Shown piece after piece: positions 18,776 to 58,054 of a stretch of 64,000 bases of DNA. The stretch is taken from the NCBI GenBank assembly GCA_963921825.1, contig OY997596.1, positions 3,043,001 to 3,107,000 on the forward strand, in the 5' to 3' direction. The notes under the pieces are model-generated. The model had not been told where the DNA came from. It ran no database searches and was given only the letters and a program-made list of their open reading frames with translations. Made by a program: the position numbers and the translations under genes. Source of the stretch: Erodium maritimum (lineage: Eukaryota > Streptophyta > Magnoliopsida > Geraniales > Geraniaceae). Each line of letters starts with the position of its first letter. Within the stretch, counting starts at the first letter, position 1.

Positions 18776-19267
18776 CCTAAAAACTAGAGAACCAATCCTA
18801 GCCACATACACCTAAGATCCAACATTCACCATGATGCCACATCATCACCCCAATTTCACCAAATCTCACGCCAATTTCATCATTTCTCACACAAGCAAGA
18901 GCATAATTGTAAAAGCATGGTGCCATGTGGACAAGTGTCCATTTTTTTCTTCACCAATTCACTAATTTAATATTTTCCGATTCGTTTGAACTCCGATTAG
19001 CTTCAAACTTGCGCCAATATTTTTATTTTTTCAAGGGCTTTAAATCAAGATCAATCATGAATATATTTTGAAGCACGAAAATACAAAGGTATATCGGAGT
19101 GATAAAAATAATGTTGAGTGTTGATAAATCTTCACTAATAAATGTTTTATATCAGAGGTATCAAACTAGTGCTAAATGTTGATAAAAACATGTACTGAGG
19201 TGATAAAAACCATGTTCAATTATGATAATAAGTGTGATATACTAGAGTTTAGCGTTGATAAAAAAAC

Positions 19268-19745
19268 ATGTGATGGAGTGATAAAAACACATGTAATTTA
19301 ATGATAAACATAGTTTTAGTGTTGATAAAACTGGTGTTCATAAAAAGCACGTGATGAGATGATAAAAATCATGATCAGTTTTGGAGAATGGGGTGATAAA
19401 ACCAGTGTAGAGTGTTGATAAAACCAGAACAAAGTGTTGATAAAAATTAGCTAGATATAATTTCTTTAAAAACCAGCCCCGAAATAAATAAATAAAATGC
19501 GTGCTTCAAAAAAAACATGTGATGGAGGTGATAAAACACACGTAATTGAATGGTAAACCTAGTGTTTAGTGTTGATGAAACTAGTGTTCATAGAAAGCAC
19601 GCGATGAGGTGATAAAATCATGATCAGTTTTGGAAAATGAGGTGATAAAACCAGTGTAAAGTGTTGATAAAACCAATGTAAAAGTGTTGATAAATCCAGA
19701 GCAAAGTGTTGATAAAAATTACCCAGATTTTTTTATAAAAAAAAT
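19268..19745. repeat. Two tandem copies of a ~247-bp unit rich in GTGTTGATAAAA
   Basis: The segment beginning AACATGTGATGGAGTGATAA near 19267 recurs near 19515 as AACATGTGATGGAGGTGATA, and the order of landmarks (GTTTAGTGTTGAT, GTTCATA.AAAGCACG, ATCATGATCAGTTTTGGA, GTGATAAAACCAGTGTA) is kept. Within each unit the short motif TGTTGATAAA or GTGATAAAA repeats many times, and similar motifs extend back to about 19095. Confidence 0.75.
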
Positions 19746-19905
19746 CAACACCGAAATATTTTTTTCTTTCGTGCTTCAAAATATATTCATGACTGATCCT
19801 GATTTAAAGCCCTTAAAAAAACAAAACTAATGACGCAAGTTTGAAGCCAATCGGAGTTCAAACGAAGCGGGAAAAAATAAATTAGTGAATTGATTAAAAA
19901 AAATA

Positions 19906-21137
19906 GGGTTATTTACGATAAGGGACCCTTATGTTTCGTCCACGAACGATAAGGTACCCTAATGAATTTTGTGTCCGATAAGGTACCCTAATGATTCGTC
20001 CACGAACGATTTGATTTAAAATTGGCATATTCCGTTAAAAACTAACGAAATATTCCTCTAACTTAGACATTTTCAGTTAAGTGGGGTGTGAAATGACGAT
20101 TTTACCCTTTCTTATTTTAAGCTTATAAATTTGATAGAAAAAATTATCATTATACCCTTAATTATATAATACAATAAAAATATAATAAATAAATTTAATT
20201 TTTTTAAAATTTTGAAATTAAATTATTAAAAATAATATTAAAAATATTAAAAAATACAAAAAATTAAAAAATCATTTTATTTTTAAAAAAAATTAATTTT
20301 ATTAAAAAAAATCGCAGAACAGAACTCGTCTTCTCCGGCAAGCTCCGGCCACCCCTCCTCCGGCATCTCGTCCCCGACCACCCCCACCTCCGCCGCCGAC
20401 TCCTCCCTCTTCCACCTCCCATCGTCTGAAACCTCGTCGCAGAGCTGAAGCTCGCGATTTGGTTCAGATCTGAACCAAATCGCGAGCTTCAGCTCTGCGA
20501 CGAGGTTTCAGACGATGGGAGGTGGAAGAGGGAGGAGTCGGCGGCGGAGGTGGGGGTGGCCGGGGACGAGATGCCGGAGGAGGGGTGGCCGGAGCTTGCC
20601 GGAGAAGACACAGTTCTCCGATTTTTTTTTATAATAAAATTAATTTTTTAAAAAAATAATTTGATTTTTATATATAAAACTGTTTTTAATAAAAAAAAAT
20701 TATTTATATATAAAAAAACTAATTATTAAAAAATAAAACTAATTAAATATAAAATCTGATTTTAAAATATAAAAATCTGATTTTAAAAAAATAAAAACTG
20801 ATTTTTGAAAAAAAAACAAATTCAGTTTTAAAAAAATATAACTTTAAAAATATATATAATTTATTTATTTTATTTTGAAAATTAAAATTAATTAGAAAAT
20901 ATAAATTAAGGAAAAATAATAATTGAGGGTATAATGGTCATTTCACTCTTAAGTCAAAAGTCAACTGAAATGTCAAAGGGCAAAATAGTCATTCTACATG
21001 ATTCTGTTAGTTTTTTAACAGCATTAAACCAAATCGTTCGTGGACGAATCATTAGGGTACCTTATCGGACACAAAATTCATTAGGGTACCTTATCGTTCG
21101 TGGACGAAACATTAGGGTACCTTATCGTAAATAACCC
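19906..21137. mobile_element. 1232-bp foldback (Mutator-type) element with central palindrome
   Basis: Flanked by an exact 9-bp duplication AAAAAAATA (19897-19905 and 21138-21146). The terminal inverted repeats begin GGGTTATTTACGATAAGG, are near-identical for about 115 bp, and contain the direct repeat GATAAGGTACCCTAATG. Sequence then diverges and becomes AT-rich, but the centre (20329-20608) is a GC-rich palindrome of two 140-bp arms meeting at CAGATCTG with one mismatch seen by eye. The 9-bp duplication and long TIRs fit the Mutator superfamily. No transposase is present; a transcript would fold into a long hairpin. It lies in the right arm of the older element at 18776-21274. Confidence 0.85.
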
Positions 21138-21274
21138 AAAAAAATATATGATAGTTTTACTAAAAAGCTCTTACCACTTACTAAAAAGTTTTTTTTTTGC
21201 AGTCAACTACTCAACTGCATCTCATCCATCCATTCTTAAAATTGATGGCTTAGATTGGTTCTCTAGTTTTTAGG

Positions 21275-21883: not shown

Positions 21884-21942
21884 TTGGGTAAGAGTTTGGT
21901 GTATATTCGTTCCTCATAAAGAAAACATTTGTGCCGATTAAA

Positions 21943-24849
21943 ATGGTCATGGGGTCATCTCTTTGGTACCTTTTCATGTTCACATTTGTTTCAAATTCTC
22001 ATATAGTCAAGGCAATGCCATGCCAGGCCACAGACAACTCTGCTTTGATCGAGTTCAAGAAAAGCTTCACGATTCGCAAGTTTGCCTCCTCCGATCCCCG
22101 CGCTCATCCAAAAATCCTCTCGTGGGCTCTCGACGGTGATTGTTGCTCGTGGGACGGTGTTCATTGTGACGTTGAGGGCCATGTGATTGGCCTCGACCTC
22201 AGTAGTAGTTGCCTCTTCGGTTCAATCCACTCCAATAGCAGCTTCTTGAAGTTGAAACACCTTCAGTCCGTGAACCTAGCGGACAACCATTTCAACTACT
22301 CTCCCATACCGCCCGAATTGGCCCGTCTTGCTAGCACCCTAACTCATTTAAACCTTTCCATGAGTAAGCTAGCGGGCCAAATCCCGCCAGAGGTTTCCAC
22401 CCTGTCAAAATTAGCCGTTCTTGACTTGAGTTCAAATGTTGAGTCTTCTTCAATGAGTTTGCTACAGCTCAAGAGCGCGACGTTTACAAGTTTGATCCAG
22501 AATTTGGCGAGCCTTGAAGATCTTACCCTCGACGGGGTGAACATATCATCCACGGTGCCTAGCGCATTGTCGAGGTTATCTTCTCTGTCGAAGCTCAATT
22601 TAAGGGGCTGCAATCTCGTAGGTGAGTTCCCATCAAGTATTTTCCTGTTTTCCAACATTCAGTATCTCAACATTCAATTCAACCCACAGCTATCTGGCCA
22701 TTTGCCAGAGCTGAGTTGGAGCCCTCTCAAGTCACTAAAACTTAGTGACACGAGCTTCTCTAGCCAGATGCCTTATTCGATAGGAAACATTCGTTTCTTG
22801 ACAGAACTGAATATCAGCATGTCCAAGTTCTCGGGGCTTATCCCGTCTTCATTTGGCAACCTCACCAAACTCACTTCTCTCGATTTCTCCTACAATAACC
22901 TTAGCGTCGGGGACTTGAGCTGGCTTGCTCGTCTAACCAGCCTCAGAACCTTGTCTTTCAAGAATGTCAACATAAGCAGTGATATCCCATCTTCCCTGTC
23001 AAGCCTCACCAAACTTAACTTCTTGTGCTTGCAAGCCTGCAAGTTAACTGGTTCCATCCCGACCGGGCTTCAAAGCCTCACCCAACTGACAACTCTGGAT
23101 CTTGGTCGTAACTTTCTGCAAGGCCCTCTTCCAGAACCTGTCTTCTCCAGACTTGTGAACTTGGAGTTGATTTGCCTGTATGCAAATAACTTCAGTGGGA
23201 GGCTCGATTTTCGCATGTTTCGCGACATGAGGAATCTCACTGTCCTGGATTTAGGGTATAACCATATGTCAATTCTTGATCACTCTGTAACGCTTCCAAA
23301 ATTGAGCGTTTTAAGCTTGGCTTCGTCCAATTTGAACAAGTTCCCGAGTTTCTTGAGGCGTCTCAAGAATTTGAGTTGGTTGTCTCTAGCAAATAACAAC
23401 ATACATGGTGAGGTGCCCAGCTGGTTATGCAGCACAAGCAGAGAAGCTCTTGTTACCTTGGATCTCTCCAACAACTCATTGACAGGAATTGGCCAATGTG
23501 ACGCTTCTCGTTCGTGGCCTAATCTACAGTATTTGGAGCTTTCCCGTAACTTGTTACGGGGGCCTCTCCCTACCCCGCCGCCCTCCATCACCTACTACAT
23601 TGTCGGGGACAACGCGCTCACCGGGGAAATTCCTCTCCTCTTCTGCAATTTGGATTCCCTTGTCATTCTTGATCTGTCGCGTAACGACTTGAGTGGCAAG
23701 ATTCCTTATTGTCTTGCAAGATTGAGCAACTTATCCGTGCTAAGTCTGCGCAACAACAACTTCTCTGGCACCATTCCCCGGATGTGCAGGAATGGGACTA
23801 GCAAGCTGGAGGGAATCGATTTGAGTGAAAATCAGTTGCGAGGGAAGATCCCGAGATCCTTAGCCAATTGCACAATGTTGAGAGGCATTGATGTTGGGGG
23901 GAATCAAATTCATGGTGCATTCCCCTTTTGGATGGGGAAGCTTGAGAGGCTGCAACTCCTCATGCTTCGATCAAACCGATTTCATGGTTCGATACAGAGT
24001 TGTGATGTTGTAAACAATCATGAGTTTCAAAGTTTGAGAATCATTGATCTTTCTCACAATGGGTTCTCAGGTCTTTTACCCTCTTGTTTGTTCTATAAGT
24101 GGAGTTCCATGAAGAAGTCCAACCCAATCCACTTCACATACATGAAGACTAACAGAAGCTTCTCTATCGTGTATGCTGAAACCATAGCTTACAACGCTTT
24201 CTCAATGATTTTGGCCAACAAGGGAAGTGAGCTAGAATATGGGAAGATCCCAAATGAGTTTGCAGCGGTCGATTTCTCGAGCAACAACTTCAGCGGAGAG
24301 ATTCCTGAGTCCATTGGAAATCTAAATGGTTTGTATGTGCTCAACCTTTCCAACAACTATCTTACCGGGCGCATCCCTTCTTCTCTAGCAAGCCTATCCG
24401 AGATTGAATCTTTGGATCTTTCCGACAACAAGCTGTCTGGAGAAATTCCGCGACAACTGGTGCAACTCAATTTTCTTGCTTTCTTGAATGTCTCTGGCAA
24501 CAATCTTGCAGGGGAAGTCCCGCGAGGGAAGCAGTTTGATACGTTTCAAGATGATTCGTTTGGTGGGAACCCGAGACTATGCGGAGCCCTTTTGATCACC
24601 AAAAGATGCAGGGGTTCTACGCCTTCAAACGCACTGCCCACTTGTTCTGCAAATTGTGAGGAGGTTGGGTCATCGATCCTGGCTAAGTCGGATTGGATAG
24701 CAATGGCAATGGGTTATGCGGGTGGACTGTTGGTTGGCGTTGTTATAGGCAATTCGACCATGGCAAAGAAATCTAAATGGTTCGGCAAAGTGTTTGAAAA
24801 AATGATAAAACAACCAACAAGAAGTGGCCGAATGAGCCTCGGAAATTAA
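21943..24849 (+). CDS. Leucine-rich-repeat receptor-like protein (RLP, Cf/EIX type), single exon
   Basis: Cell-surface LRR protein of 968 residues without a kinase domain. Such RLPs usually signal with the adaptor kinase SOBIR1 in immunity or development (family knowledge). The open frame extends to a GTG at 21931, but the first ATG is 21943. Order: signal peptide (about 1-24), LRR N-terminal cap with CCSWDGVHC (67-75), LRRs of the plant type (LDLS.N.LSG.IP), a non-LRR island (about 711-766, including KWSSMKKSNPIHFTYMKTN), four more repeats (VDFSSNNFSGEIPESIG onward), C-terminal cap with GNPRLCG, a membrane segment (about 917-940: WIAMAMGYAGGLLVGVVIG), and a basic cytoplasmic tail of about 30 residues. 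It is intronless and undamaged. The ligand cannot be inferred; resistance-gene versus developmental roles cannot be told apart here. Confidence 0.93.
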   Translation: MVMGSSLWYLFMFTFVSNSHIVKAMPCQATDNSALIEFKKSFTIRKFASSDPRAHPKILSWALDGDCCSWDGVHCDVEGHVIGLDLSSSCLFGSIHSNSSFLKLKHLQSVNLADNHFNYSPIPPELARLASTLTHLNLSMSKLAGQIPPEVSTLSKLAVLDLSSNVESSSMSLLQLKSATFTSLIQNLASLEDLTLDGVNISSTVPSALSRLSSLSKLNLRGCNLVGEFPSSIFLFSNIQYLNIQFNPQLSGHLPELSWSPLKSLKLSDTSFSSQMPYSIGNIRFLTELNISMSKFSGLIPSSFGNLTKLTSLDFSYNNLSVGDLSWLARLTSLRTLSFKNVNISSDIPSSLSSLTKLNFLCLQACKLTGSIPTGLQSLTQLTTLDLGRNFLQGPLPEPVFSRLVNLELICLYANNFSGRLDFRMFRDMRNLTVLDLGYNHMSILDHSVTLPKLSVLSLASSNLNKFPSFLRRLKNLSWLSLANNNIHGEVPSWLCSTSREALVTLDLSNNSLTGIGQCDASRSWPNLQYLELSRNLLRGPLPTPPPSITYYIVGDNALTGEIPLLFCNLDSLVILDLSRNDLSGKIPYCLARLSNLSVLSLRNNNFSGTIPRMCRNGTSKLEGIDLSENQLRGKIPRSLANCTMLRGIDVGGNQIHGAFPFWMGKLERLQLLMLRSNRFHGSIQSCDVVNNHEFQSLRIIDLSHNGFSGLLPSCLFYKWSSMKKSNPIHFTYMKTNRSFSIVYAETIAYNAFSMILANKGSELEYGKIPNEFAAVDFSSNNFSGEIPESIGNLNGLYVLNLSNNYLTGRIPSSLASLSEIESLDLSDNKLSGEIPRQLVQLNFLAFLNVSGNNLAGEVPRGKQFDTFQDDSFGGNPRLCGALLITKRCRGSTPSNALPTCSANCEEVGSSILAKSDWIAMAMGYAGGLLVGVVIGNSTMAKKSKWFGKVFEKMIKQPTRSGRMSLGN

Positions 24850-30852: not shown

Positions 30853-33800
30853 TTAGCTGGTTGCAGCTGGTTTTGCCATGGCCTTCTTTATGGCTTCCGC
30901 GTAGGTCCTGTGCTGATAGGTGAGGGTCGATTCGAGCAGATCCCAAAGCGATGTCTTTGGATTCCAACCTGGGATGCACAAGAAATCCCCCAAAGTCGTC
31001 AAAAGGTAAAATCGTCATTTTGAAACAAATTTACACAGTTGACAAAAGGTTCGAGGGACTTTTTTGCAATTATCAAGGAAGAAGGGATACAACTTGCAAC
31101 AGATGAATACCTCAAGGTACATTTTTGCAATTATCCCTACTTCAAGAGATAATCTCACAGAAATCCACTCAGTTTCTAACTCAACTACACTACAATTTCA
31201 AATCTTCTTAATTTTGGTAAGGGAAAATATCAGATTGGTATCTTTAACTATACGTTTTTAACACATTGGTACCCTTAACTAATTTAATCACTAAAAAGGT
31301 ACCTTAAGTTTTCAATCAGTAACACTTTAGTGTTTTCCGTCCATTTTTGGACGGAAAATGGTCATGGTGGTGGAGATGAAGGCTGGGGAAGAAACAGAAT
31401 GAAGGAGAAACAGAATGAAGGAGGCGTATGTATGAAATAAAATGGGAAGATGAAGATTGCGTAAGAGAAATAAGGTAAAAGAATAATTAGGGTTTGGAAA
31501 ATGGTCATGGTGGTGGAGATGAAGGCTGGGGAAGAAACAGAATGAAGGAGAAACAGAATGAAGGAGGCGTATGTATGAAATAAAATGGGAAGATGAAGAT
31601 TGCGTAAGAGAAGTAAGGTAAAAGAATAATTAGGGTTTTAATTTAGAGGGGTATTTTTGTCATTTTTTGAAAGTTTAAGGTCATGTGCATTGCACATGAC
31701 CATTTTCCGTCCAAAAAATGGACGGAAAACACTAACGTGTTACTGATTGGAAACTTAAGGTACCTTTTTAGTGATTAAATTAGTTAAGGGTACCAATGTG
31801 TTAAAAATGTATAGTTAAGGGTACCAATCTGATATTTTCCCTTTTGGTAATGAATGAAAAAATTACCCTTAATTCATTTACGAAAATGGGACACTGCTAC
31901 CATGAATTTTGTCAAAGTTTCCTAAATTGTTGCATTGCAGGGGTATTTTTGTTATCAAATAAAATGAGGAAACTTGAAAGTTTGGTGTAGTTGTGTGAGA
32001 AAATTTAAAAGTCAATTTAATGAGAAAGATAACAAGTTTAGTGTACTTTTGTGAGATTGTCCCTGGTTTGTTTTATCAGCTCAGAAGGACAATAGTTATA
32101 GCACATGACAGAACATTATTGAGAATAGGAACAATAAATATTAACATACCGAGCTGTTTGTTGATGATGGTCATGTCTGGAATCCTCTTATCACTGTCAT
32201 CGTATCCCTCACCATAAAATTCCTTGGAGCTCACATCAATTGTAGGTGTCTCCAATGAAGGTTCTCCACTAACCTTAGTGTAAACCTGCAGAGTGAAAGG
32301 ACAAAACTCTCAGTTCCCGAAAACATAAATGCCAATCCAAGACCCAGAACACGAATTGGAAATAAGAACGGTGAATAAATACCAATGTTCTAAAAGCCCC
32401 AATATCTCCCCAAGAACACAGCGAAACTTAATCACCGGGTTCGATAAGTGGAAATCAGTCAACTTGGTCAATTGAATCAAAATCCAGTCAAACACGGTCA
32501 ACTATCATGCATACATAATTCTGAAGTGTATGTGAAAATTTGTACTCAAAGATCTATGCATAGTACAAAGACTAAAAGATATTATGGTAGCAAGTTCAGT
32601 TCAATTTTCAAATACAATTCTATTTCACAGAACATGGATTAATGTGTTTGAAACTACCTAATTTACTAAACTATTGCTATTTTTGTTGTCTGCAATAGAT
32701 GTATTATATATTAATGTATATTTAATACAAAACGAATTTCACCTATAAGTACACATCATAAAACTAATTTCTCACCTGAGTCATCATCTCAGCAAGCTGC
32801 CTAACTGTAACTTCATTGTTAGGATTGCCAACATTGAAAATATGACCGTTGGCTCTGGCAGGATTTTCCTGAGAAGGAGAAACACGGCCATTTCTCAAAC
32901 AGTTAATTATCGATGTAAATTACAAAAAAAAAAGCGAACAAAAGGAGTGATCATATTTTGAAACGTACAATCATCAGTAGAACAGCCTCAATAGCATCCT
33001 TTATATAGACAAAGGTTCTCTGGGATTCGCCACCATCCACAAGTTTGAGTGGTTCACCTCTTAGGAGACCCTGGGATGCGACAAAAAGAAGATTTTTTTA
33101 TTGCTACCGAGATGGAAAAGATGCAAGATTATCTATACAACAAGGCCATATTTCAACTCACATTACTGAAGCATGCCAAAACCCTTGGAACACCCTCACT
33201 TGGTCCATCGATGCCGGGGATAAAATCCATTCTGGGTCCAATCCAGTTGAATGGTCTCACAATAGTGAACTCAAGACCATTCTCAGCACCCTCAGCTATA
33301 AGCCAAATTTCAATGAGAGAAATTAACAAAGTTATAATTTAAGAATAGCTTAATAACAATCAGATCAATAGACAACTGCTCACCATATATTAGCCTCTCA
33401 ATCAATTGCTTAGCACAAGCATAAGACCACCTTTGCTTCTCAATGGAACCAAAAATGCAAGGGGATGAATCTTCTTTCAGAATATAGTAAGCAGGGTCCT
33501 ATAACAACATAACAAATAAATTAACTCAAAACTTCCAATACTTGTACCAACTGAATGGCAGGAGATAATACGAAGTGATATTCAACATCTTAGTAAGCAA
33601 AGATCAAAATTTGAAGTCCCAAACGATTAGTTCAAAGTTTTAGCAAAATTATCACATGAAGAATCAACTACATGTCTACATTTTTCCTACATAAGTCAAC
33701 AGCCAACTTTGATGTTACCACAAATACCCAACAACTGGTTGCACACAACATTCTTGTTTAAGCAAATGTATCTGAGCTTCCAGCCAAATAGTTTGCCCTA

Positions 33801-35572: not shown

Positions 35573-37133
35573 ACGTATCCTAAACTTGTCACGATTAATT
35601 GATATCTACCTCATCTTTTTTTATAACCAATACATACTCAAATGTTCCCGAAATATAACCGATAGCCCCTACCGTCCATCTTCGTCAGTCTCTTTTTTGT
35701 TAAATGACGAGACTACCCTCAATAAACTTTCAATACTGCATCAGCATGCTATTCTTTTTATTTATTTACTTTATTTTCTTAAGTTTTAATTATCTCCTCC
35801 CTCTCTCTCCCGATCCTATGTCTCCTCCCTCACTCCTCCCTCTCTCTCCTTCCTCCCCCTCTCTCCTCCTTCCACCACCGCCCCTCTCTCCTCCCTCCAC
35901 CACCGCCCCTCTCTCTTCCATTTCAATACCACCACCGCCACTGACCCTATGTCTCGAGGGCTTCGGCTCTGGAGAACAAAAACGGTGTCGTACTAGAGAG
36001 GTCGCAGCACGGTATCAAGACCAGCTTGAACGTGTCCTTGAGAGTCAGGGCACAGCTCTTCTCCCCCGTGAACACTCCTTCACTGCCTTCTCCAGTCTGG
36101 CGGTGCCGCCGTCGCCGTTGAGAATCCGGCGGAAGAATTTCCGGGAGGAGGAGGATCGGTAGAATCGCTTCCCTTGTTGAGCGAGGAGCTTCCACGTGTC
36201 CTCCGCCTGAAAAATGGGGCGACGCTGAACCTTGGTGGCGAAGAGCATCGCCGTGAAGATGCCTCCGGTTACGGTCCCGAAGGCGACGTCGAAGAAGTCG
36301 GCAATTCTGGCGTCGGGGTCGCCAGACTTGGTCTTGAGGGCCTGCTCGAGGTAGTGGAGAGCCTAACCGGAGATGATCCCACGCATGGCGGTGCCGTCGA
36401 TGGTTAGGACGCAGATTTTGGGATTGTGGTTGGGAGGTGGGAGAGGTTTGGGGATCCAGAGGTTGTGATCGTTGTAGCCGAAGAGGAATTTGGTCAGCGA
36501 GGAAGAGGAATCAGCGAGGAAGAGGAATCAGCGAGATTGGGTGAACGAGATTGGGTGAGGAAGAGGGGATGAGATGAAACTGATTTTTTATTTACTGTTA
36601 TTCGATTTTTTTATAAATATTCAATATTTATAAATTTTTAATTAATAAAAAAAGGATTTCTGAAAAACATTAAAATTACATTTAAAATAAATCAATGAAA
36701 ATAAGAAATATTATTAAAATTAGTTTGAATATTAAAATCTGAATTTTTGTATTTTTATATTAAAATATGTTTTTTTATATATTTTTATATTAAAATATGA
36801 ATTTATATATTTTTTAAAATTAAAATTGAATTTCAAAAATTAAAATTTTAAAATTTTAAAATAAAAAAAATTTATAAATATAAATTGAATTTATAAAAAT
36901 AAAACAATAAGAAATTATTTTTGTAAACAATGGTATTTTCGTAAATAAATGATGGTACTGTGGGTTTAGGGTTAAAGGCATTGTTGGTATTTTTGAAAAA
37001 ACTAACAGAAAATGGATGGAAAATCATACGACAGGGGCTATCGGTTATATTTCGGGAACATTTGATTATGTATTGGTTATAAAAAAAGATGGGGGTAGGT
37101 ATCAGTTAATCGTGACAAGTTTGGGGTATTAAA
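35573..37133. mobile_element. Inverted-repeat element carrying a captured gene fragment (Pack-MULE-like)
   Basis: TIRs of about 90-100 bp. The left arm has AAACTTGTCACGATTAATTG and then ATAACCAATACATACTCAAA with ATGTTCCCGAAATATAACCG; the right arm reversed has the same order with few changes. No clear 9-bp target duplication was found, so the exact ends are uncertain by several bases. Inside is a patatin-like gene fragment (35947-36506) in reverse orientation, flanked by AT-rich filler and a CTCCTCCCTCTCTCC tract. No transposase. TIR plus host gene fragment is the Pack-MULE arrangement; without the target duplication the superfamily remains an inference. Confidence 0.65.
35947..36506 (-). pseudogene. 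Captured fragment of a patatin-like protein (PLP) gene
   Basis: On the minus strand the reading starts FLFGYNDHNLWIPKP, continues PKICVLTIDGTAMRGIISG and meets a stop. It resumes with LEQALKTKSGDPDARIADFF and DVAFGTVTGGIFTAMLFATK, then EDTWKLLAQQGKRFY. After a frameshift near 36075 it ends LTLKDTFKLVLIPCCDLS and PFLFSRAEALET before a stop. This is the N-terminal half of plant group-III patatin-like proteins. Family members normally have DGGGMRG at the oxyanion loop; here it is DGTAMRG. The stop, frameshift and missing C-terminal half rule out an active acyl hydrolase. No introns are seen in the fragment. Confidence 0.8.
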
Positions 37134-45421: not shown

Positions 45422-45459
45422 TAGTATGTATTGTGATAGTGATTTTTAGTAGACGAGTT

Positions 45460-45592
45460 TGTTAGCATATCTAATTCAAATATCAAATGTAATGTATTTG
45501 AATTGTAGTTATCCTTATCATGTATAGGATATGAGGTGTATATATTTCTGATTAATGGAATACAGAAGACACGATTCATACCAAAACCATTA
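45460..45592 (+). repeat. Left LTR of the copia element (133 bp)
   Basis: Starts TGTTAGCATATCTAATTC and ends AAACCATTA. I compared it with 50278-50410 base by base and saw no difference. The promoter and terminator of the element lie in this short repeat. The terminal dinucleotide is TG...TA rather than TG...CA. Confidence 0.96.
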
Positions 45593-45604
45593 TGGTATCA
45601 GAGC
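45593..45604 (+). promoter_or_regulatory. Primer binding site (initiator tRNA-Met)
   Basis: TGGTATCAGAGC begins at the first base after the left LTR and is the standard plant copia site complementary to the 3' end of initiator methionine tRNA, which primes minus-strand DNA synthesis. Confidence 0.95.
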
Positions 45605-45841
45605 CTTGAGTTCTACTCCAACTCTACCTCTTCTCTAAATCTATCTCTTCCGCTTATTTCAAATTCTCTACTCTACTCTATCACGTCTATTCCTTTACTA
45701 TTGACGCAGGTTCTATTTGCAATATCATATTCGCATATTGCATATTGCAGCAAGTTCTATTTGCAAAACCAGAATAGCATATTGGCAACAAGTACCAGAA
45801 TCAGTTCCTGCAAGCTTAAGCCACTCTACAACCGGCTGTAC

Positions 45842-47137
45842 ATGGCGAGTCACCCTGCTCTCACCGTCACCAATATACGTCTAGCTATTCCTATTATGCT
45901 GGACATGGAGAAGCAACACTATTCCTCGTGGGCGGAGCTCTTCAAAATTCACTGTCGGGCGTTTCAAGTAACTCACCACATCCTCCCTGATGTGCCGCCC
46001 TACCCATCCTTTGTTATTGAGGAGTCCAGTGAATCCATTGATGCATCCAAACCAGCTGCAACAGAGTCCGAAAAATCGACAGATACAAGCAAAAAGGCTA
46101 CCACAACTTCAACTCCATCGGTTGATTATCAGGTGCACTCTTTCTCTACTACACCCAACACTGAATTATGGTATCGTGTTGATGCTGTTGTGTTGCAATG
46201 GATATATGGAACTATCTCGGGTGATTTATTGCAAACGATTATTGAACCTGACTCCACTGCTGCTCGAGCTTGGTCTGCTTTACGTAGTATTTTTCAGGAT
46301 AATCGACATACCCGAATAGTTCATCTTGAGAATCAATTCTCAAACACTCAGCTGGAGTCATTCACGGGTGTGTCCGCTTATTGTCAGGAGCTCAAATCTC
46401 TCGCTGACCAACTCGCCAATGTCGGAGCACCGGTGTCCAATAACAGATTGGTTGTGCAGATGGTCACGGGCTTATCTAATGCCTATGATCATGTCGCTGC
46501 TCTTATACAACAGAGGGATCTGTTTCCCATGTTCCACGAAGCCAGATCCCAACTCATCCTGGAGGAAGTTCGAAAGCAGAAGCAAGCCATGTTTTTGGGA
46601 CATTCTTCAGCACTACTGTCCCAGATTTCCGGCAACTCAAACTTGCCTGGTGGAGCACCTTCCGGCCGGCAGCATCGTGGGCAGTGTCCTGACAAGGGAG
46701 GTCGAGGACAGAACAGGAACGACGGTGTTCGTTCGCAGCATCGCACGTCCCATGGTCATCGTAGCTCCGATCGGTTTATCGCTGCTGACGTGCGTTCTGA
46801 ATCTCAATTCCAGAATCGTAGGCCTCCATACCATCATGGACCGTGCCCTTATCCGACCCAGGCCGAGTGGTCTGGACAGCAGCAACGGGCTCAATGGGCG
46901 GCCCAAACTCAATTCTGCAGCAACAGACGCACGCACCTCACTCTCCCGGTGCTGGCAGCGCTGGTTATCAAATGTCTGCGGGCTTACTTGGGCCCAATCC
47001 TACCTCACGTGGCCCAACCCAGCATCAGAATGGAGCTGCCCACTCCTATTTCAGCCATGCACCCCGAGCATCCTCCATCACCCCCGGGACAGAGCACAGC
47101 GTTTCTACACATATTGATGCCGCCTTCAACTCTATGA
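45842..47137 (+). CDS. Copia gag (UBN2-type) reading frame, ends out of frame with pol
   Basis: The first ATG in the gag frame after the primer site is 45842 (MASHPALTVTNIRLAIPI); the frame itself is open further upstream. The capsid region shows WAELFKIHCRAFQVTHHIL, WIYGTISGDLLQTI, LRSIFQDNRHTRIVHLENQF and YCQELKSLADQLANVGAPVS, as in copia gag of the Retrofit/Ale type. The C-terminal part is Gln/Arg/Gly-rich; I see no CCHC zinc knuckle, which is often missing in this lineage. From about 46905 the gag frame loses meaning and the family-like sequence continues in the pol frame. A 1-nt deletion or a minus-1 translational shift would explain this. Confidence 0.85.
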   Translation: MASHPALTVTNIRLAIPIMLDMEKQHYSSWAELFKIHCRAFQVTHHILPDVPPYPSFVIEESSESIDASKPAATESEKSTDTSKKATTTSTPSVDYQVHSFSTTPNTELWYRVDAVVLQWIYGTISGDLLQTIIEPDSTAARAWSALRSIFQDNRHTRIVHLENQFSNTQLESFTGVSAYCQELKSLADQLANVGAPVSNNRLVVQMVTGLSNAYDHVAALIQQRDLFPMFHEARSQLILEEVRKQKQAMFLGHSSALLSQISGNSNLPGGAPSGRQHRGQCPDKGGRGQNRNDGVRSQHRTSHGHRSSDRFIAADVRSESQFQNRRPPYHHGPCPYPTQAEWSGQQQRAQWAAQTQFCSNRRTHLTLPVLAALVIKCLRAYLGPILPHVAQPSIRMELPTPISAMHPEHPPSPPGQSTAFLHILMPPSTL

Positions 47138-50100
47138 CGTTAACTCCACCCGACCAATGGTACATGGACTCAGGTGCAACTTCCCATATGACTTCCCAAT
47201 CAGGTAGTCTCCATTCTTATGTCAATTGCAATTCAAATCGTCATGTTGTGGTAGGAAACGGCAATCATATTCCAATTGTGGGTTATGGTGATGCATCCTT
47301 AACACCCGACCATCCATCTTTAACCTTATCTAATATTATTCATGCCCCTCACATCATTAAAAACCTGGTATTTGTACGCCGTTTCGTCACGGATAATAAT
47401 GTTTCTGTTGATTTTGATCGGTTTGGTTTCTCTGTGAAGGATTATCAGACGGGCAAAGTTATGCTGAGATGTGATAGCTCGGGAGATCTTTATCCTGTGT
47501 CTTCATTATCCACCTTCTCTCGTGGTGCAGAGTCTTCGTTTTTGGTTTCCTCCTCGTCGATTTGGCACTCCCGGTTGGGTCACCCTGGTGCTCCAGTCTT
47601 TGATGCTCTTCGGCGTAATAATTTGGTCCGATGTGGATCACATTCTAGTTGTTTCTGTCAGTCTTGTGCACTTGCGAAAAACATTAAATTGCCATTTCCT
47701 ATTTCTCGTACTTGTACTTTTGCACCATTTGACATTATTCATGGGGACTTATGGACATCGCCTGTTTTAAGTTCTGCAGGGCATCGTTACTATTTATTAT
47801 TGATCGATGATTTTACTAACTTTGTATGGACTTTTCCGTTACAAACCAAATCTCAAGCATATTCTGTATTTGTATCGTTTCACTCATATGTCCGTACTCA
47901 GTTTGGCACATCCATCAAGGCGTTCCAATGTGACAACGGGAAGGAGTTTGATAATGGACCACTTCGCAAAATCTGCTCGGAATTTGGCATGCTATTTCGC
48001 CTCTCGTGCCCGTACACATCTCCTCAAAATGGACGTGCAGAATGTAAATTTCGTACGATCAATAATATTATTCGTACTCTTCTGGTACATTCTTCTGTCC
48101 CTCCTAAATTCTGGCATTTCGCTTTGTCTATGTCTACATATCTGCACAATATTCTTCCTTCTAAAAGACTTAATTTTGTCACTCCTACTCATTACTTATT
48201 TTCTCGTATTCCATCGTATGATCATCTTCGTATATTTGGTTGTGCATGCTATCCTCTTACTCCTGCTGTCTCAATTCACAAATTACAATCCCGGTCTGTT
48301 CCATGTGTGTTCTTGGGTTTTCCATCTCAGCATCGTGGTTTTCTATGCTTTGACCCGAAGGCAAATCGAATCATTGTGGCGAGACATGTTATTTTTGACG
48401 AAACGGTATTTCCATTTGCTACTAATCTTCCTTCCCCTAATGATTATGATTTTTTAGATCTTACCACTCCACTGTTTTCAGTACCTGACAATACCTGCCC
48501 AATACCAGTACAAAGCTCGCCCTCGGTCTCACCTGTCTCTCCATTGACACCTGTACCTTTGGCACCGACCCCTTCCCCTCCAGCAGATACTACTCCGCCG
48601 ACCACTCAACCCTCGGTCGCTGTACCTACTGCTCCTCCACCGCCAGCTCACCCTATGCAGACTAGATCACGGTCGGGAATTGTCAAACCTCGCACATTAT
48701 TTAACCTATCAGTTTCCACCCCTCCATCTCCAGTCCCTAAATCCACCAAGGATGCTCTTCTTGAACCACATTGGCGTCGTGCCATGCATGATGAATATGA
48801 GGCGTTGATTAAGAATAACACATGGGAACTTGTACCTCGTCCTCGTACTGCTAATATTGTCCGGTCTATGTGGCTTTTTCGTCATAAAGTTCGTTCTGAC
48901 GATTCTTTTGAGCGCTATAAAGCTCGTCTTGTAGGTGATGGAAGCTCTCAACTGGTTGACGTGGACTGCACAGAGACGTTTAGCCCCGTGGTTAAACCAG
49001 CTACTATCCAGACGGTGTTGAGTATTGCTCTTTCTCGTTCATGGCCGATTCACCAGCTGGACGTCAAGAATGCTTTTCTTCATGGTGATTTGTCAGAGAC
49101 TGTTTATATGCACCAGCCACAGGGATTTCGCAGTACTACACATCCAGACTATGTTTGTCTTCTCCGACGGTCCCTCTATGGCCTCAAGCAGGCTCCACGA
49201 GCATGGTATCAACGGTTCACAGATTATGTTGCCACTATTGGATTCTCCCACAGCAAGACTGATCACTCGTTGTTTATCTATCGATGTGGGTCTGACACGG
49301 CATTCCTCCTCCTCTACGTAGACGACATTATCCTCACTACATCTAGTGACACACTTCGTCTGTCTATCATGGAGCTATTGGCCTCCGAGTTTGCCATGAC
49401 GGATCTTGGGCCTTTGTCGTACTTCTTGGGCATAGCAGTCACTCGTCACACTGGTGGTCTATTCTTGTCCCAACGTAAGTATGCTGAGGATATTATTCAT
49501 CATGCTGGCATGGAATCTTGCTCACCATCAGCTACTCCAGTCGATTCTAAGGGTAAGCTCGGAGCCTCTGCTGGTGAACCGTTCTCTGATCCGTCGCTCT
49601 ATCGAAGTCTCGCAGGAGCTCTACAGTACCTCACCTTTACTCGTCCTGACATCGCCTATGCTGTTCAGCAGGTCTGCTTACATATGCATGATCCTCGTGT
49701 TGGACATATGGGAGCGCTCAAGCGAATCATTCGATACATTCAAGGGTCGCTACACCTTGGACTACATCTCTATGCTTCTGCAACGATGGATTTGGTTGCT
49801 TACACGGACGCAGACTGGGCGGGGTGTCCGGATACACGCCGATCTACTTCTGGCTACTGTGTCTTCCTTGGCGATAATCTGATCTCTTGGTCGTCTAAAC
49901 GACAACCCATAGTTTCTCGTTCGAGCACTGAGGCTGAATACCATGGGGTTGCACAAGTTGTCTCTGAGTCATGCTGGGTCCGTAATCTCCTCATGGAACT
50001 CCACTGCCCGTTATCTCGTGCTACCCTGGTCTATTGCGATAATATCAGTTCCATATACCTGACCGGGAATCCAGTTCAACATCAGCGGACTAAGCACATC

Positions 50101-50283
50101 GAGCTTGACATACACTTTGTACGGGAGAAAGTCACTCGTGGTCACATTCGTGTTCTTCATGTTCCTACACGCTCACAGATTGCTGACATATTTACCAAAG
50201 GACTACCTCAGGTTCTGTTCGTTGATTTTCGAGCTAGTCTGAACGTTCGTGATCCTCCCGCTCTGACTACGGGGGTGTGTTAG
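46850..50283 (+). CDS. Copia pol: protease, integrase, reverse transcriptase, RNase H
   Basis: One open frame (its formal upstream limit is a GTG, not a true start). Seen in order: protease WYMDSGATSHM (about 47160), GAG-pre-integrase HSRLGHPG with the H-H-C-C zinc site ending CQSCALAK, integrase core with GDLW, CDNGKEFD and NGRAEC supplying D-D-E, reverse transcriptase with ETFSPVVKPATIQ, LDVKNAFLHGDL and the catalytic YVDD at 49315-49326, and RNase H with YTDADWAGCPDTRRSTSGYC and SSTEAEY. No internal stop is present. The stop TAG (50281-50283) lies inside the right LTR, so the last codon before it comes from the LTR. Confidence 0.95.
50269..50277 (+). promoter_or_regulatory. Polypurine tract region before the right LTR
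   Basis: ACGGGGGTG directly precedes the right LTR. Its position is right for the plus-strand primer; the run is G-rich but shorter than a textbook polypurine tract. Confidence 0.6.
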
Positions 50284-50410
50284 CATATCTAATTCAAATA
50301 TCAAATGTAATGTATTTGAATTGTAGTTATCCTTATCATGTATAGGATATGAGGTGTATATATTTCTGATTAATGGAATACAGAAGACACGATTCATACC
50401 AAAACCATTA
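50278..50410 (+). repeat. Right LTR of the copia element (133 bp)
   Basis: Looks identical to the left LTR and is followed by the target copy GAGTT. It also contains the stop codon of pol at its fourth to sixth bases. Confidence 0.96.
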
Positions 50411-53315: not shown

Positions 53316-53589
53316 GGGTTAATTATCTTTTGTACCCCTTTTCTATTGGTAACATACCTTTTGTACCCCTGCGTTTTGTAACGTTCAATAACAGTCCCTC
53401 AGTTTTGGTAACTGTCATTTAGTACCCTTTATGAATTGGTCACAGATCATTTAATACCCCTTATGAATTGGTCACATATCACCAAAATGACGTAAACTTG
53501 ACCAAAATTTTGTCCAGAGCGTTACCAATACATCAGGGGTACTAAAAGAGTGTTACCAATAGAAGAGGGGTACTAAAGGTAATTAACCC
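53316..53589. mobile_element. 274-bp foldback (Mutator-like) MITE, GGGTTAATTA family
   Basis: Exact 9-bp duplication TTGTTAAAA (53307-53315, 53590-53598). The TIRs begin GGGTTAATTATCTTTTGTAC and GGGTTAATTACCTTTAGTAC (reversed), and both continue CCC.TCTATTGGTAACA. No ORF. The same family is present, broken in two, at 57277-58054. Confidence 0.85.
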
Positions 53590-53598
53590 TTGTTAAAA

Positions 53599-53991
53599 TG
53601 TGTTATATCGTAGGAAGAAAGCATAAACAGTATGACGAAGTTAATAACCAAAAGCAAAGAAATAATATAAGTACAGAATAAAAATAGCAAAAGAGTAAAC
53701 CAATACGAACAACAATCACACAACAATACCGCAAGTAAAATCACAATCCCTGTAACTTACAATAGAGCCACTTAAACAGATAAATGAACAAACCAAGATA
53801 AATAATCACTATTCTGATGCTTTGAAGAAGGTCAGATTTGATAATTTAGAGCTAGGGATTGGTTAAACAATGTGATATAAACATACACAATTCCATCAAG
53901 AAGGTTCCAAAATAAAGTGATTAAACACAGTAGAATACTTGTAGTTCAAATAGAAAGTATTTGAAGCAAAAAGAAGAGTCTAACCTTAAGG
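53599..53991. other. Intergenic / 3' flank of the two-part gene
   Basis: AT-rich sequence containing the likely 3' UTR of the minus-strand gene that ends at 53992. No further feature. Confidence 0.35.
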
Positions 53992-55156
53992 TCAGTATGA
54001 CTCGTCTTCTTCGGATGAAGAGTAACACAATTCACCGGCCAACCTCTTAGCCTGCCTCTCGGCCATCCTTCTAGACTGCCTCTCATCTTCGTCCTCCGCA
54101 ACGTAGAGGGGTAATGTAATTTCAAGGACCTCGTCATCCTTATCATGGATCAAATCATTCAGTGAGTAGATCATGACCTTAACCTTGAGCTTCTTGTCAA
54201 TGCGCCTCCTCCTTTGTCTGCGCGTGATGTTTATGTCGCCCTCTATAAAATCAAAATAATACTGCCCGACTTCATTGCTGCCCCTGAGCTCAAACATTTT
54301 GGATTCAGCCACAACAGAGCAATGAAACTCAGAGCGTTTGAACTTCAAATTGAGTGCAATTCTCATAAAAGAGTCCTCCCCGTTTAAATGAGATGGATTT
54401 ACATCCGGCTCCCCACCACACTCAAGTATCAAGCGGTTCATATCATCAACATAATCGCTCTCCAAGCGTACAGGGGCAGCGACGAACTTCCTATCCAGAG
54501 GAATTGTCCGGGCAGGAGTAAGGAAGGGGTAGCCAAGGTTGATGACGGGAACATCCTTGAGTCGGATAGGATCGGACTCAGGTCTATCCAAAAGAGTCAA
54601 TTTCCTCTCAAATTGAGCTCCTGTTTGTATCGCCGTGACCGTCCCTGAGACGAGCCACTCTGCATCAGAGGGGTCGATATAACCAAGTCATCGACATTGT
54701 GAGCTTGCCCTGATCTCCGGTGAAGCAAGCGTCGAAACTTTGATTTGAATCCCTGTACGGCTCGAGAACAAGCGGAAACGCCGCCCGAAGGAAAGGGCGA
54801 GGAGCTCCTCCTCCTTCTATGTCCAGTTCATGGAGATCCACATAGAGGATTTCTGGAAATTCGACGCAGTGGCGGGGCCCACACAGGGTCAGGCATCGCT
54901 GGGACGAGATCGAGACGATCTCGGCCTGCTCGGAGGTCCGGTGATAGATGCAATAAGCCATGTTCACATGGCCGCGGTTGACATGGATGTCACCGAAGAT
55001 GTGGCGCTCTCCATCTCCGGCTGTGATCTCCAGCTTCACCGACTCGATGCTCAATAGACAAGTTTGAATCCTAGCTAGCTGGTCACATCTATCGGAATCA
55101 GAAGACTTCGTTTGAAGCTGGTCAGATCTAACGGAACTACAAGACTTGAGGTCCAT
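53992..55156 (-). pseudogene. Uncharacterised two-part protein with a frameshift (possibly DUF6598-like)
   Basis: ATG 55156 opens 163 codons ending at 54665. A second frame, open through 54600 to a stop at 53992, carries about 200 more. The second frame already reads sensibly from about 54685 (YIDPSDAEWLVSGTVTAIQT), just where the first loses meaning, so one shift near 54680 separates two halves of a protein of about 385 residues. The first half has GERHIFGDIHVNRG and SQRCLTLCGPRHCVEFPEIL, reminiscent of DUF6598 proteins known mainly from grasses (tentative). The second half has LGYPFLTPARTIPLDRKF and an acidic/basic C-terminus ending SSSEEDESY. A GT...AG intron of 24 nt at this spot would be too short. 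A gene with one recent frameshift or a sequencing error are both possible. A Harbinger element lies 127 bp upstream of the ATG. Confidence 0.5.
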
Positions 55157-55282
55157 CGCCTTTCAAATTAGGTTTCCTTCTGCAACTCCATCGAACAAGG
55201 CGAGAGGTTGAGATATTAGCAGAGGTTGTTGATGATCGGGCCTACAGGTGAACTGTGGCTTCAGGCCCAATTCAAATACTAA

Positions 55283-57199
55283 GAGCACCTCCAACGGTCG
55301 TGTCTACGCGTCGTTGCTGGCGTAGACACGACTTGTCGTTTCTACGAGGCGTATCTGCAGGGTCGTGGTTGCGCGTCGTTGCTGGTTCTGGCAACGACGC
55401 TGCTGGTCGTGTCTGGCGCCAACGGCTAGTCGGCTAGCCAGTCACGACCCGCCACGTGGCGACGCCGACCCCCCCAAAGCCCAACAGTTTTCTATAAATT
55501 CAGATCTGCCCCAATTGAAATCTCTCTTCTCCTCTCTTCTTTCGAGCTTCTATTCATCTGTTCTCTCCAAATCCTATAGTGTTTCATATTATTTTTTTTT
55601 CCGATGGCTAGTCTTCCGACGCTAGACGAGATGAAGCAAATGACGGAAAAACAAATAGACGCCGCGGTGGATAGGTATCTGGAGGCAACACAACAAGCAT
55701 TGGAGGATCAACTGATGGCAGCCGTACAACCAATGAGTGATGATGATGATGATGAGGCCGAGAGCTCATTGTCGGCGCCGAGACCCAAGCGGAGAGTGAT
55801 TGAGCGCAACCGCGAAGATGCACACGAAGGGCTGATCCGTGACTACTTCGCGCCTCAACCGGTGTACAGCGAGCAACAATTTCGGCGACGGTTCCGGATG
55901 TCGAGGGACATGTTCATCCGGATCATGAATGGTTTGAGTGCCCGGTACGCCTACTTCCGTAACGGAAAGGACGCTACGGGGAGGGCCTCTTTCACTCCAC
56001 ACCAGAAGTGCACGGTAGCACTTCGTCAGCTCTGTTATGGAAGTCCAACCGATGCTTGCGACGAGTATTTGCGAATGGCGGAGACCACTGCGCTGGACTG
56101 CCTGAAGAAGTTTTGCATTGGCGTCATCAAGGTGTACGGGCGGACCTATCTACGACGCCCGACCGTGGACGATACAAAACGGTTGTTGCGAATCAACGAA
56201 GAGCGCGACTTTCCGGGGATGTTAGGGAGCCTGGACTGCATGCATTGGGATTGGAAGAACTGTCATGTGGCATGGGCTGCACAGTTCGCAAGTAGGGACC
56301 ACGGGAACGTCCCCACAATCATGCTCGAAGCCGTAGCATCCCAAGACCTTTGGATCTGGCACGCTTTCTTCGGGACACCGGGCTCCAACAACGACATCAA
56401 CGTGCTCAATAGGTCTACACTATTCTCCCAAGTAGTAAAAGGCTTCGCCCCAGATGTGAAGTTCAAGATCGGCGGTAGAGAGTACGAAACCCCGTACTAC
56501 TTGACAGATGGAATCTATCTTGCTTGGGCAACATTTGTGAAGTCCATACCTGCTCCACAAACGCCGAAACAACGATGCTTTGCTAGATACCAAGAGGCGT
56601 GTAGGAAGGACATCGAACGGGCGTTTGGAGTTCTACAGGCCCGGTTTCACATCGTTACTCGCCCGGGTCGAATGTGGGATAGGGGCTCACTCGCAATTAT
56701 CATGACTGCTTGTGTGATCCTACACAACATGATCGTATAGGATGAGCGTAGGCCGTGGCCCACTGATCCGCTTGCAGATCTTGTTGTCCCGGACCACACC
56801 GTACGTAGAGGACCACCCCCAGCGGTGACCAACGAAAGTATCTTGGGCCATAGAGCAAGGATTCGGGATCGGAATGTGCATCACCAACTCCATGATGATC
56901 TCATCGAACACATTTAGGCAAAATTTGGAGATGGCGGCCTTAATTAAATATTAGTCAGCAACGTTAATGTAATTTCTATTTTGTTTGTAATAAAAAAAAT
57001 AGTTATGCAATTCGTATTTGGGTATAATTAAAAGTGTCAGAAATATTTGGGTGCTTTTTTTAATTTAGTGAAACTGTGTAGACACTGCGTAGACACTACC
57101 ATTGGAGGAGCAGTGTCTGGAATCAGTGTCTAGAGGCCAAAAACAGTGGTTAGACACTACGCATAGACACTGTGCAGTGTCTAACCATTGGAGATGCTC
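55283..57199 (+). mobile_element. Nearly intact PIF/Harbinger element, 1917 bp
   Basis: Flanked by TAA on both sides (55280-55282, 57200-57202). TIRs are GAGCACCTCCAACGGT and GAGCATCTCCAATGGT (right, reversed). The 5' subterminal region repeats GCGTCGTTGCTGG and TAGACACGAC; the 3' region repeats TAGACACT. It carries one transposase ORF and no Myb-like ORF1, so it is smaller than a classic two-gene PIF element. The TIRs and subterminal repeats match the MITE at 3531-3833. Confidence 0.9.
55604..56917 (+). pseudogene. PIF/Harbinger (HARBI1-like) DDE transposase with one premature stop
   Basis: The frame opens at ATG 55604 and runs 378 codons to TAG at 56738-56740, then continues in the same frame for another 58 codons to TAG 56915-56917. 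Seen: an acidic patch DDDDDEAESS, FRRRFRMSRDMFIRIMNGLS, the SLDCMHWDWKNC block (first Asp), SNNDINVLNRSTLF (second Asp), YYLTDGIYLAWATFVKSI, RKDIERAFGVLQARFHIVTR (Glu), ILHNMIV. In the sister copy at 39.8 kb ILHNMIV is followed by EDERG; here the stop replaces the Glu codon position and DER follows it. All catalytic residues precede the stop. Whether the truncated protein works is unknown. Confidence 0.9.
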
Positions 57200-57276
57200 T
57201 AATAGGAAACTCGGTTAATTCAAATACATTGTGCATGTTGGGGAAATTAGGAAAATAATTTTAACTGAAAATTTTA

Positions 57277-58054
57277 GGGTTAATTATATTTAGGGTTAAT
57301 ACCATCTCAGTACCCTAAATCTTTCATATTTCATTTAGAATACCCTAAATCTTTTTTGTGTCATCTCAGTACCATAAATCTTTCATATTTCATTTCGAGT
57401 ACCCTAAATCTTTTTTGTGTCACCTCAGTACTCTAAACTTTTATTAGTTCCATTTTAGTACCCTAAACTTTCATTAATTTCATTTTAGTACCCACCGTTA
57501 ACTTTACCATAATTTTGGTTATTGGTGAGGGGTAGTATGGTCATTTTACCTGTTTTGGATGTAAAATCATATGTAAAGTTAAAGGTGGGTACTAAAATGG
57601 AATTAATTAAAGTTTAGGGTACCGAGGTGACACAAAAAAGATTTAGGGTACTCTAAATGAATTAATGAAAGTTTAGGGTACTGAGGTGACACAAAAAAGA
57701 TTTAGGGTACTCTAAATGAAATATGAAAGATTTAAGGTACTGAGGTGGAATTATCCCTTATATTTATTACCCTTTATGTATTGGTAACACTCATTTAGTA
57801 CTTTGATGTATTGTTAATGTTTTGGAAAAAAATTTGGTCAAATTTACGTCATTTTGATGATCTGTGACCAATTCATAAGGAGTATTAAATGTTCTGTTAT
57901 CAATATATAAGGGATATTAAATGGTATGTGACCAATTCATAAAGGTGACTAAATGTGTGTTACCAAAATAGAAGGCCTGTTTTTGAACGTTACTACAATA
58001 AATGTACTAAAGCTATGTGACCAATAGAAAAGGAGTACAAAAAGTAATTAACCC
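57277..58054. mobile_element. Older foldback MITE of the GGGTTAATTA family, split by another MITE
   Basis: The left end GGGTTAATTATATTTA (57277-57292) and the right end, reversed GGGTTAATTACTTTTTGTAC (58035-58054), match the TIRs of the 53316-53589 element. The body resumes at 57758 with TTATATTTATTACCC and contains TATTGGTAACAC phrases as in that family. Flanks AAAATTTTA and AAAGTCTTA agree at 7 of 9. The 57293-57757 element interrupts it 16 bp from its left end. Confidence 0.75.
57293..57757. mobile_element. 465-bp foldback (Mutator-like) MITE nested in another MITE
   Basis: Exact 9-bp duplication TTATATTTA (57284-57292, 57758-57766). TIRs are GGGTTAATACCATCTCAGTA and GGGATAATTCCACCTCAGTA (reversed). 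The arms are built of tandem variants of TACCCTAAATCTTTCATATT and TTAGGGTACTGAGGTGACAC. No coding capacity. Confidence 0.88.

What the first reader, a model, noticed from the sequence alone, without database searches (positions are those of the whole stretch)
19906..21137. 1.23-kb foldback element with a near-perfect 2 x 140 bp palindrome at its core
Seen: exact 9-bp target duplication, ~115-bp near-identical termini, and a GC-rich central palindrome (20329-20608) with about one mismatch in 140 pairs. The intermediate arms have diverged far more than the core or the ends. Inference: the core was duplicated into inverted form recently, or is kept matched by gene conversion or selection. A read-through transcript would be a natural hairpin-RNA source of siRNAs. 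The GC-rich core differs sharply from the AT-rich arms and may be captured host sequence.
Basis: partly seen in the sequence, partly recalled or inferred. Interest (0 to 1): 0.72.

Follow-up and report, generated by a model that had tools for sequence, protein, structure and literature searches.

The report
Plant foldback transposon with palindromic core
A small plant jumping-gene remnant that looks like the Mutator type carries a short GC-rich stretch copied head-to-head into a near-perfect hairpin; it looks like an ordinary element of a known kind, and whether the hairpin makes small RNAs is untested.

Summary
Window 19906-21137 is a 1,232-bp insertion with an exact 9-bp target duplication (AAAAAAATA), 114-bp terminal inverted repeats (111 of 114 match) and a spacerless GC-rich palindrome at 20328-20609 (140 of 141 pairs match). 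The arms between are more diverged, though for part of them homology is not shown above shuffles. Its ends fit a non-autonomous Mutator-like (MULE) foldback element. A MULE foldback with almost identical long inverted repeats and 9-nt duplications (MuTAnT) and GC-rich capture by MULEs are published. But the core is not significantly better matched than the termini (p = 0.33). The siRNA and captured-host-gene ideas are untested: all eight host-genome searches did not complete, and no plant sequence collection or small-RNA data was at hand. Verdict: real feature, new member of a known kind, modest interest.

The parts
19897..19905 (.). left copy of the 9-bp target-site duplication, AAAAAAATA
19906..20019 (+). 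left terminal inverted repeat, 114 bp, 97.4% identical to the right one
19915..20010 (+). three spaced subterminal repeats of CGATAAGGTACCCTAATG type within the left terminus (about 31-bp period); possible transposase-binding sites (inference)
20020..20266 (+). diverged left arm; outer part homologous to the right arm (0 of 200 shuffles reach the score of 20020-20130), inner AT-rich part not shown to be homologous (26 of 200 for 20131-20266)
20267..20327 (+). left AT-rich flank and 16-bp junction next to the core
   Evidence: 41 of 45 and 10 of 12 aligned bases, with 3 and 4 gap columns
20328..20468 (+). left arm of the GC-rich palindrome (141 bp)
20469..20609 (-). right arm of the GC-rich palindrome, no spacer; single mismatch 20377/20560
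20610..20669 (-). right junction and AT-rich flank matching 20267-20327
20670..21023 (-). diverged right arm, 354 bp against 247 bp on the left; its inner part (to about 20836) is covered by overlapping weak AT-rich tandem-repeat calls
21024..21137 (-). right terminal inverted repeat with three exact subterminal repeats (21050-21067, 21079-21096, 21110-21127)
21138..21146 (.). right copy of the 9-bp target-site duplication, AAAAAAATA

Best explanation
A non-autonomous, Mutator-like (MULE) foldback DNA transposon in a plant genome, moved in trans by a MULE transposase encoded elsewhere. At some point it took up a GC-rich stretch of about 140 bp, most likely DNA from outside the transposon. A template-switch or snap-back repair event (for example during gap repair after excision) copied that stretch head-to-head, giving a spacerless palindrome. 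Shown: the target duplication, inverted termini, repeated subterminal motif, palindrome and divergence pattern. Inferred: the MULE transposase, the capture, the copying event, and the possibility that a read-through transcript would fold into a long hairpin and be diced into siRNAs that silence the element. Matched core and tips against diverged middle arms are best read as recent re-copying or arm-to-arm conversion of those two segments, helped by fast slippage change in the AT-rich arms. The confidence given is for the MULE foldback reading with an inverted core; the capture step alone I hold at about 0.6.
For: 9-bp duplication directly at the ends; 114-bp, 97.4% inverted termini with an internal motif array. 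PMC4858842 gives the typical MULE as 100-500-bp inverted repeats with 8-11-bp duplications (passages). No ORF of 150 aa or more overlaps the element, and six peptides from the core gave no Pfam hit. A second inverted-repeat element with an exact 9-bp duplication (TTTTGGTAA), 31221-31841, lies in the same window. MULEs capture GC-rich sequence preferentially in rice relatives (PMC4858842, passages). Sharp identity step at the core edge. The single core mismatch is compatible with a C-to-T change in a CCG context (read from the sequence), as expected in methylated repeats (general knowledge, not tested).
Against: No MULE transposase domain among the 10 window ORFs scanned, out of 15 of 150 aa or more; the two transposase ORFs found there bear Plant_tran and DDE_Tnp_4 domains instead. 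The target duplication is A-rich and therefore weak. The terminal motif occurs nowhere else in the window with up to 3 mismatches and gave no exact match in viral or prokaryote contigs, where none is expected, so family and mobility rest on this one copy. No parent of the core was identified. The core matches no better than the termini (p = 0.33).
Confidence: 0.8

Rival explanations
1. The GC-rich palindrome is an old, normal internal part of this transposon family rather than captured DNA; the whole element is one foldback whose AT-rich arms simply mutate faster by slippage and indels. (This differs from the best explanation in the capture and re-copying steps only, so the two confidences overlap.)
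For: The match between halves runs on from AT flank through junction to core (20267-20669, 92.7%); core and termini are equally matched within error; the innermost arms are nearly pure A/T and carry tandem-repeat calls.
Against: The 16-bp junction is not homopolymeric yet is diverged, and so is the outer arm 20020-20119 at 31% GC; slippage in A/T runs alone does not explain these.
Confidence: 0.35
2. The palindrome is a young hairpin-RNA locus: a captured gene fragment in inverted form that makes siRNAs against its parent gene (the inverted-duplication route to new MIR genes, or a silencer like Mu killer).
For: Long near-perfect RNA hairpin; 100 of 121 21-nt registers perfectly paired. The inverted-duplication model of MIR origin is described in PMC10004981 (passages); Mu killer was seen only as titles in a reference list. 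Full-length but sub-threshold Rfam matches to MIR839 (183.5 bits, cut-off 200, E 3.9e-41) and MIR7533 (138.8 bits, cut-off 230, E 7.8e-31).
Against: Both Rfam scores are below the curated cut-offs; the MIR7533 match is nearly equal on the two strands (138.8 and 136.7) and rests mostly on pairing rather than shared letters; a different family came out on top in each call (17, 18). No transcript, small RNA, promoter or target is shown. Within the window, 21-mers of the core match outside it at 13 start positions with 3-4 mismatches and none better, 8 of the 13 in the CT-rich stretch around 35831-35910; this exceeds 20 letter shuffles of the core (0-9), but those shuffles do not keep dinucleotides.
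Confidence: 0.12
3. The perfect core is partly an assembly product: consensus building or polishing made two near-identical arms look the same, or a chimeric read created the inner palindrome.
For: Near-identity stops sharply at the core edge; spacerless palindromes are hard to sequence (general knowledge).
Against: The palindrome is nested in diverged inverted arms, inverted termini and a target duplication, which a fold-back read artefact would not give; one mismatch remains inside the core.
Confidence: 0.08

Closest known systems
MuTAnT (Medicago truncatula MULE foldback; PMC4486113, passages)
   Same: Mutator-like foldback; the first element described is 292 bp with almost identical 144-bp inverted repeats; 9-nt target duplication; distal nucleotides GGGG/CCCC (here GGG/CCC); hairpin-forming.
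   Different: 90% of MuTAnTs are 200-300 bp and they target TA microsatellites; this one is 1,232 bp, sits in an A-rich tract and has a GC-rich palindromic core. No sequence comparison was made.
FARE1 (Arabidopsis foldback element; Windsor and Waddell 2000)
   Same: Foldback element carrying long palindromic repeats on both ends, now classed with MULEs, as stated in PMC4486113 (passage).
   Different: Original paper not held, so its duplication length and interior were not checked; no sequence comparison was made. Older plant foldback papers (Rebatchouk and Narita 1997; Tnr8) were seen only in a reference list.
Pack-MULEs (PMC3310237, Results part 1 of 2 and Discussion; PMC4858842, passages)
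   Same: Non-autonomous, long inverted repeats, 8-11-bp duplications, acquired interior that tends to be GC-rich.
   Different: An identified gene parent belongs to the definition and was not found here; the interior is an inverted duplication.
Tm1 histone-hairpin elements of root-knot nematodes (PMC3169594, passages)
   Same: Mutator/Foldback grouping, 9-bp duplications in most cases, composite inverted termini built of tandem motifs, non-coding interior with a hairpin motif.
   Different: Animal host; different terminal motifs with asymmetric outermost 7 bp; its hairpin is a histone hairpin motif.

Membership tests
Mutator-like elements (MULEs) | 8-11-bp, usually 9-bp, target-site duplication | tested here: met
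   exact 9 bp, AAAAAAATA; low complexity noted
Mutator-like elements (MULEs) | long terminal inverted repeats (usually 100-500 bp) | tested here: met
   114 bp, 111 of 114
Mutator-like elements (MULEs) | related autonomous copy with a mudrA-type transposase and the same termini | tested here: inconclusive
Foldback elements | long inverted repeats with internal repeats; element able to fold back on itself | tested here: met
Pack-MULE | interior derived from an identifiable host gene | tested here: inconclusive
   no Pfam hit for six peptides of the core; four PDB matches, best E 0.32; no plant genome or plant protein set could be searched
MIR gene (MIR839, MIR7533 in Rfam) | score at or above the Rfam gathering cut-off | tested here: not met
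   183.5 of 200 bits and 138.8 of 230 bits
siRNA-producing hairpin locus | small RNAs mapping to both arms | not testable with these tools

The most novel reading that the evidence does not exclude
A MULE has turned a captured gene fragment into a spacerless hairpin whose arms, like the element's tips, are kept identical by ongoing arm-to-arm conversion. That makes it a mobile hairpin-RNA cassette that can land next to genes (here about 0.8 kb upstream of an LRR receptor-like gene) and direct siRNAs at the fragment's parent.
Probability: 0.07. Interest if true: 0.6.

Novelty: new member of a known kind. Interest (0 to 1): 0.24.

Why it matters
If the core proves to be a recent inverted copy of a host gene fragment, this locus would be an early stage of the inverted-duplication route to silencing hairpins and new MIR genes, carried by a mobile element. 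As it stands it is a well-preserved example of a known element type, useful mainly for asking why core and tips stay matched while the arms between them drift.

Tried and rejected
Copies in the host genome were asked for eight times with the same request and never answered, so copy number, sister elements and the parent locus are unknown. The terminal motif CGATAAGGTACCCTAATG gave no exact match in viral contigs or prokaryote genomes, as expected for plant DNA. Six core peptides against Pfam at E up to 1: nothing. One 106-residue core frame against PDB: four matches, best E 0.32, taken as chance. The Rfam MIR839 and MIR7533 matches, though their E-values are small (3.9e-41 and 7.8e-31), are below the curated cut-offs and were judged structure-driven; no control hairpin of unrelated sequence was scored. 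The idea that CpG content marks the core as gene DNA was dropped, because other GC-rich stretches of the window span the same values. The 77.5%, 40-nt match of the core to 35872-35911 was taken as CT-rich low complexity, although the count of near 21-mer matches (13 positions) exceeds all 20 letter shuffles (0-9). A neighbouring repeat, 18944-19903, has inverted ends that abut the insertion; joining the flanks showed the similarity to its other end running to the junction and ending within a few bases of it, so it gives no independent empty-site test, and no target duplication of 7-11 bp was found for the neighbour. Literature searches: (two returned no papers); in those listings I saw no paper on this arrangement (MULE foldback with a spacerless GC-rich core), which does not show that none exists. 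One search failed on a search-term rule; one search asked the same question in other words.

Full report
What is there. The window looks like plant nuclear DNA, judged from content: an LRR receptor-like ORF (21931-24849), a copia element (gag, integrase and reverse transcriptase domains, 45536-50283) and two ORFs with Plant_tran and DDE_Tnp_4 domains (10 of the 15 ORFs of 150 aa or more were scanned). The species was not identified. At 19906-21137 lies a 1,232-bp insertion flanked by exact copies of AAAAAAATA. Its 114-bp ends are inverted copies with 3 mismatches. Each end holds three spaced copies of the motif CGATAAGGTACCCTAATG (one of the six has 2 mismatches, five are exact); these six are the only places in the 64-kb window with up to 3 mismatches, against 0.03 expected by chance. 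No ORF of 150 aa or more overlaps the element.

The core. 20328-20468 and 20469-20609 are reverse complements at 140 of 141 positions with no spacer. Under one search rule the next-best spacerless palindrome in the window has 17-bp arms and lies in the same element. Stretch 20267-20669, taken as RNA, folds into one long hairpin at -368.3 kcal/mol, against a mean of -123.9 and sd of 6.1 for 100 shuffles. The one mismatch, 20377 A / 20560 C, is compatible with a C-to-T change in a CCG context, read from the sequence; its direction is not known.

Divergence along the arms (global alignment; tests). Termini: 111 of 114. Outer arm 20020-20119: 74 matches, 9 mismatches, 51 gap columns. Inner arm 20120-20266: 120 matches, 18 mismatches, 108 gap columns; this is 7.5% GC, and for 20131-20266 against 20670-20889 26 of 200 shuffles score as well, so true homology is not shown. 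Flank 20267-20311: 41 of 45, 3 gap columns. Junction 20312-20327: 10 of 12, 4 gap columns. Core: 140 of 141. Fisher tests: core against outer arm p = 0.0007; termini against outer arm p = 0.03; core against flank p = 0.013; core against junction p = 0.016 on substitutions alone and 0.00035 with two indel events added; core against termini p = 0.33. The tests were chosen after seeing the data and are not corrected for number; a gap-rich alignment flatters the middle arms.

What it is. The ends and the duplication length fit a non-autonomous MULE foldback. PMC4858842 (passages) gives MULE inverted repeats as usually 100-500 bp and duplications as 8-11 bp, and reports preferential capture of GC-rich sequence in Oryza and a relative. 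PMC4486113 (passages) describes MuTAnT, a MULE foldback whose first element has almost identical 144-bp inverted repeats, with 9-nt duplications, and places FARE1 among MULEs. PMC3169594 (passages) describes Mutator/Foldback Tm1 elements with mostly 9-bp duplications. PMC3310237 (Results part 1 of 2 and Discussion) describes MULEs with duplicated termini. A second inverted-repeat element with a 9-bp duplication, 31221-31841, lies in this window. Against: no mudrA-type domain in the 10 ORFs scanned, and only one copy of these termini is known to me.

How it most likely works. Moved in trans by a transposase that binds the repeated terminal motif (inference). The GC-rich stretch was probably taken up from elsewhere and made palindromic by template switching or snap-back repair (inference; no parent found). 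Later re-copying or arm-to-arm conversion, plus slippage in the AT-rich arms, explains the uneven divergence (inference, partly supported by the sharp edge at 20327/20328). If transcribed, the hairpin would be a good Dicer-like substrate: 100 of 121 21-nt registers are perfectly paired. That is capacity, not evidence of function.

The Rfam leads. MIR839 (183.5 bits, cut-off 200, E 3.9e-41) and MIR7533 (138.8 and 136.7 bits on the two strands, cut-off 230, E 7.8e-31 and 2.5e-30) fall below the curated cut-offs, and the printed MIR7533 alignment rests on pairing more than on shared letters; the MIR839 alignment was not printed. PMC10004981 (passages) names miR839 among Arabidopsis miRNAs whose precursors resemble their target genes, the basis of the inverted-duplication model, so the likeness is one of shape and no membership is claimed.

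Limits. Everything rests on one copy.

Verdict. Real and well preserved, but an expected kind of plant element; interest 0.24, new member of a known kind.

Noticed in passing
window 31221-31841: Second MULE-like element: about 146-149-bp inverted ends at 96% with an exact 9-bp duplication TTTTGGTAA, holding a 143-bp tandem duplication (31353-31638, 99%).
   Followed up: partly
window 18944-19903: Repeat with inverted ends (18944-19100 / 19748-19903, 86%) and internal TGATAAAACCAG-type tandem repeats; its right end abuts the insertion site of the studied element.
   Followed up: partly
window 53316-58054: Inverted-repeat pair (53316-53577 / 57763-58054, 74%) enclosing a Plant_tran ORF (55604-56740) and nearly all of a 498-bp imperfect palindrome (57276-57773, 80%) built of GTACCCTAAA-type tandem repeats.
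   Followed up: no
window 35576-37128: 1.55-kb unit with 95-96-bp inverted ends at 92.7%, a CT-rich part and an AT-rich part; no target duplication of 5-11 bp found within 6 bases of the ends.
   Followed up: partly
window 21931-24849: 972-aa LRR receptor-like ORF, no kinase domain among its Pfam hits, first in-frame ATG at 21943, about 0.8 kb downstream of the element.
   Followed up: partly
window 45457-45592 and 50275-50410: Direct repeats (136 bp, 99.3%) bounding a copia-type coding region, possibly its long terminal repeats, which would suggest a young insertion.
   Followed up: no
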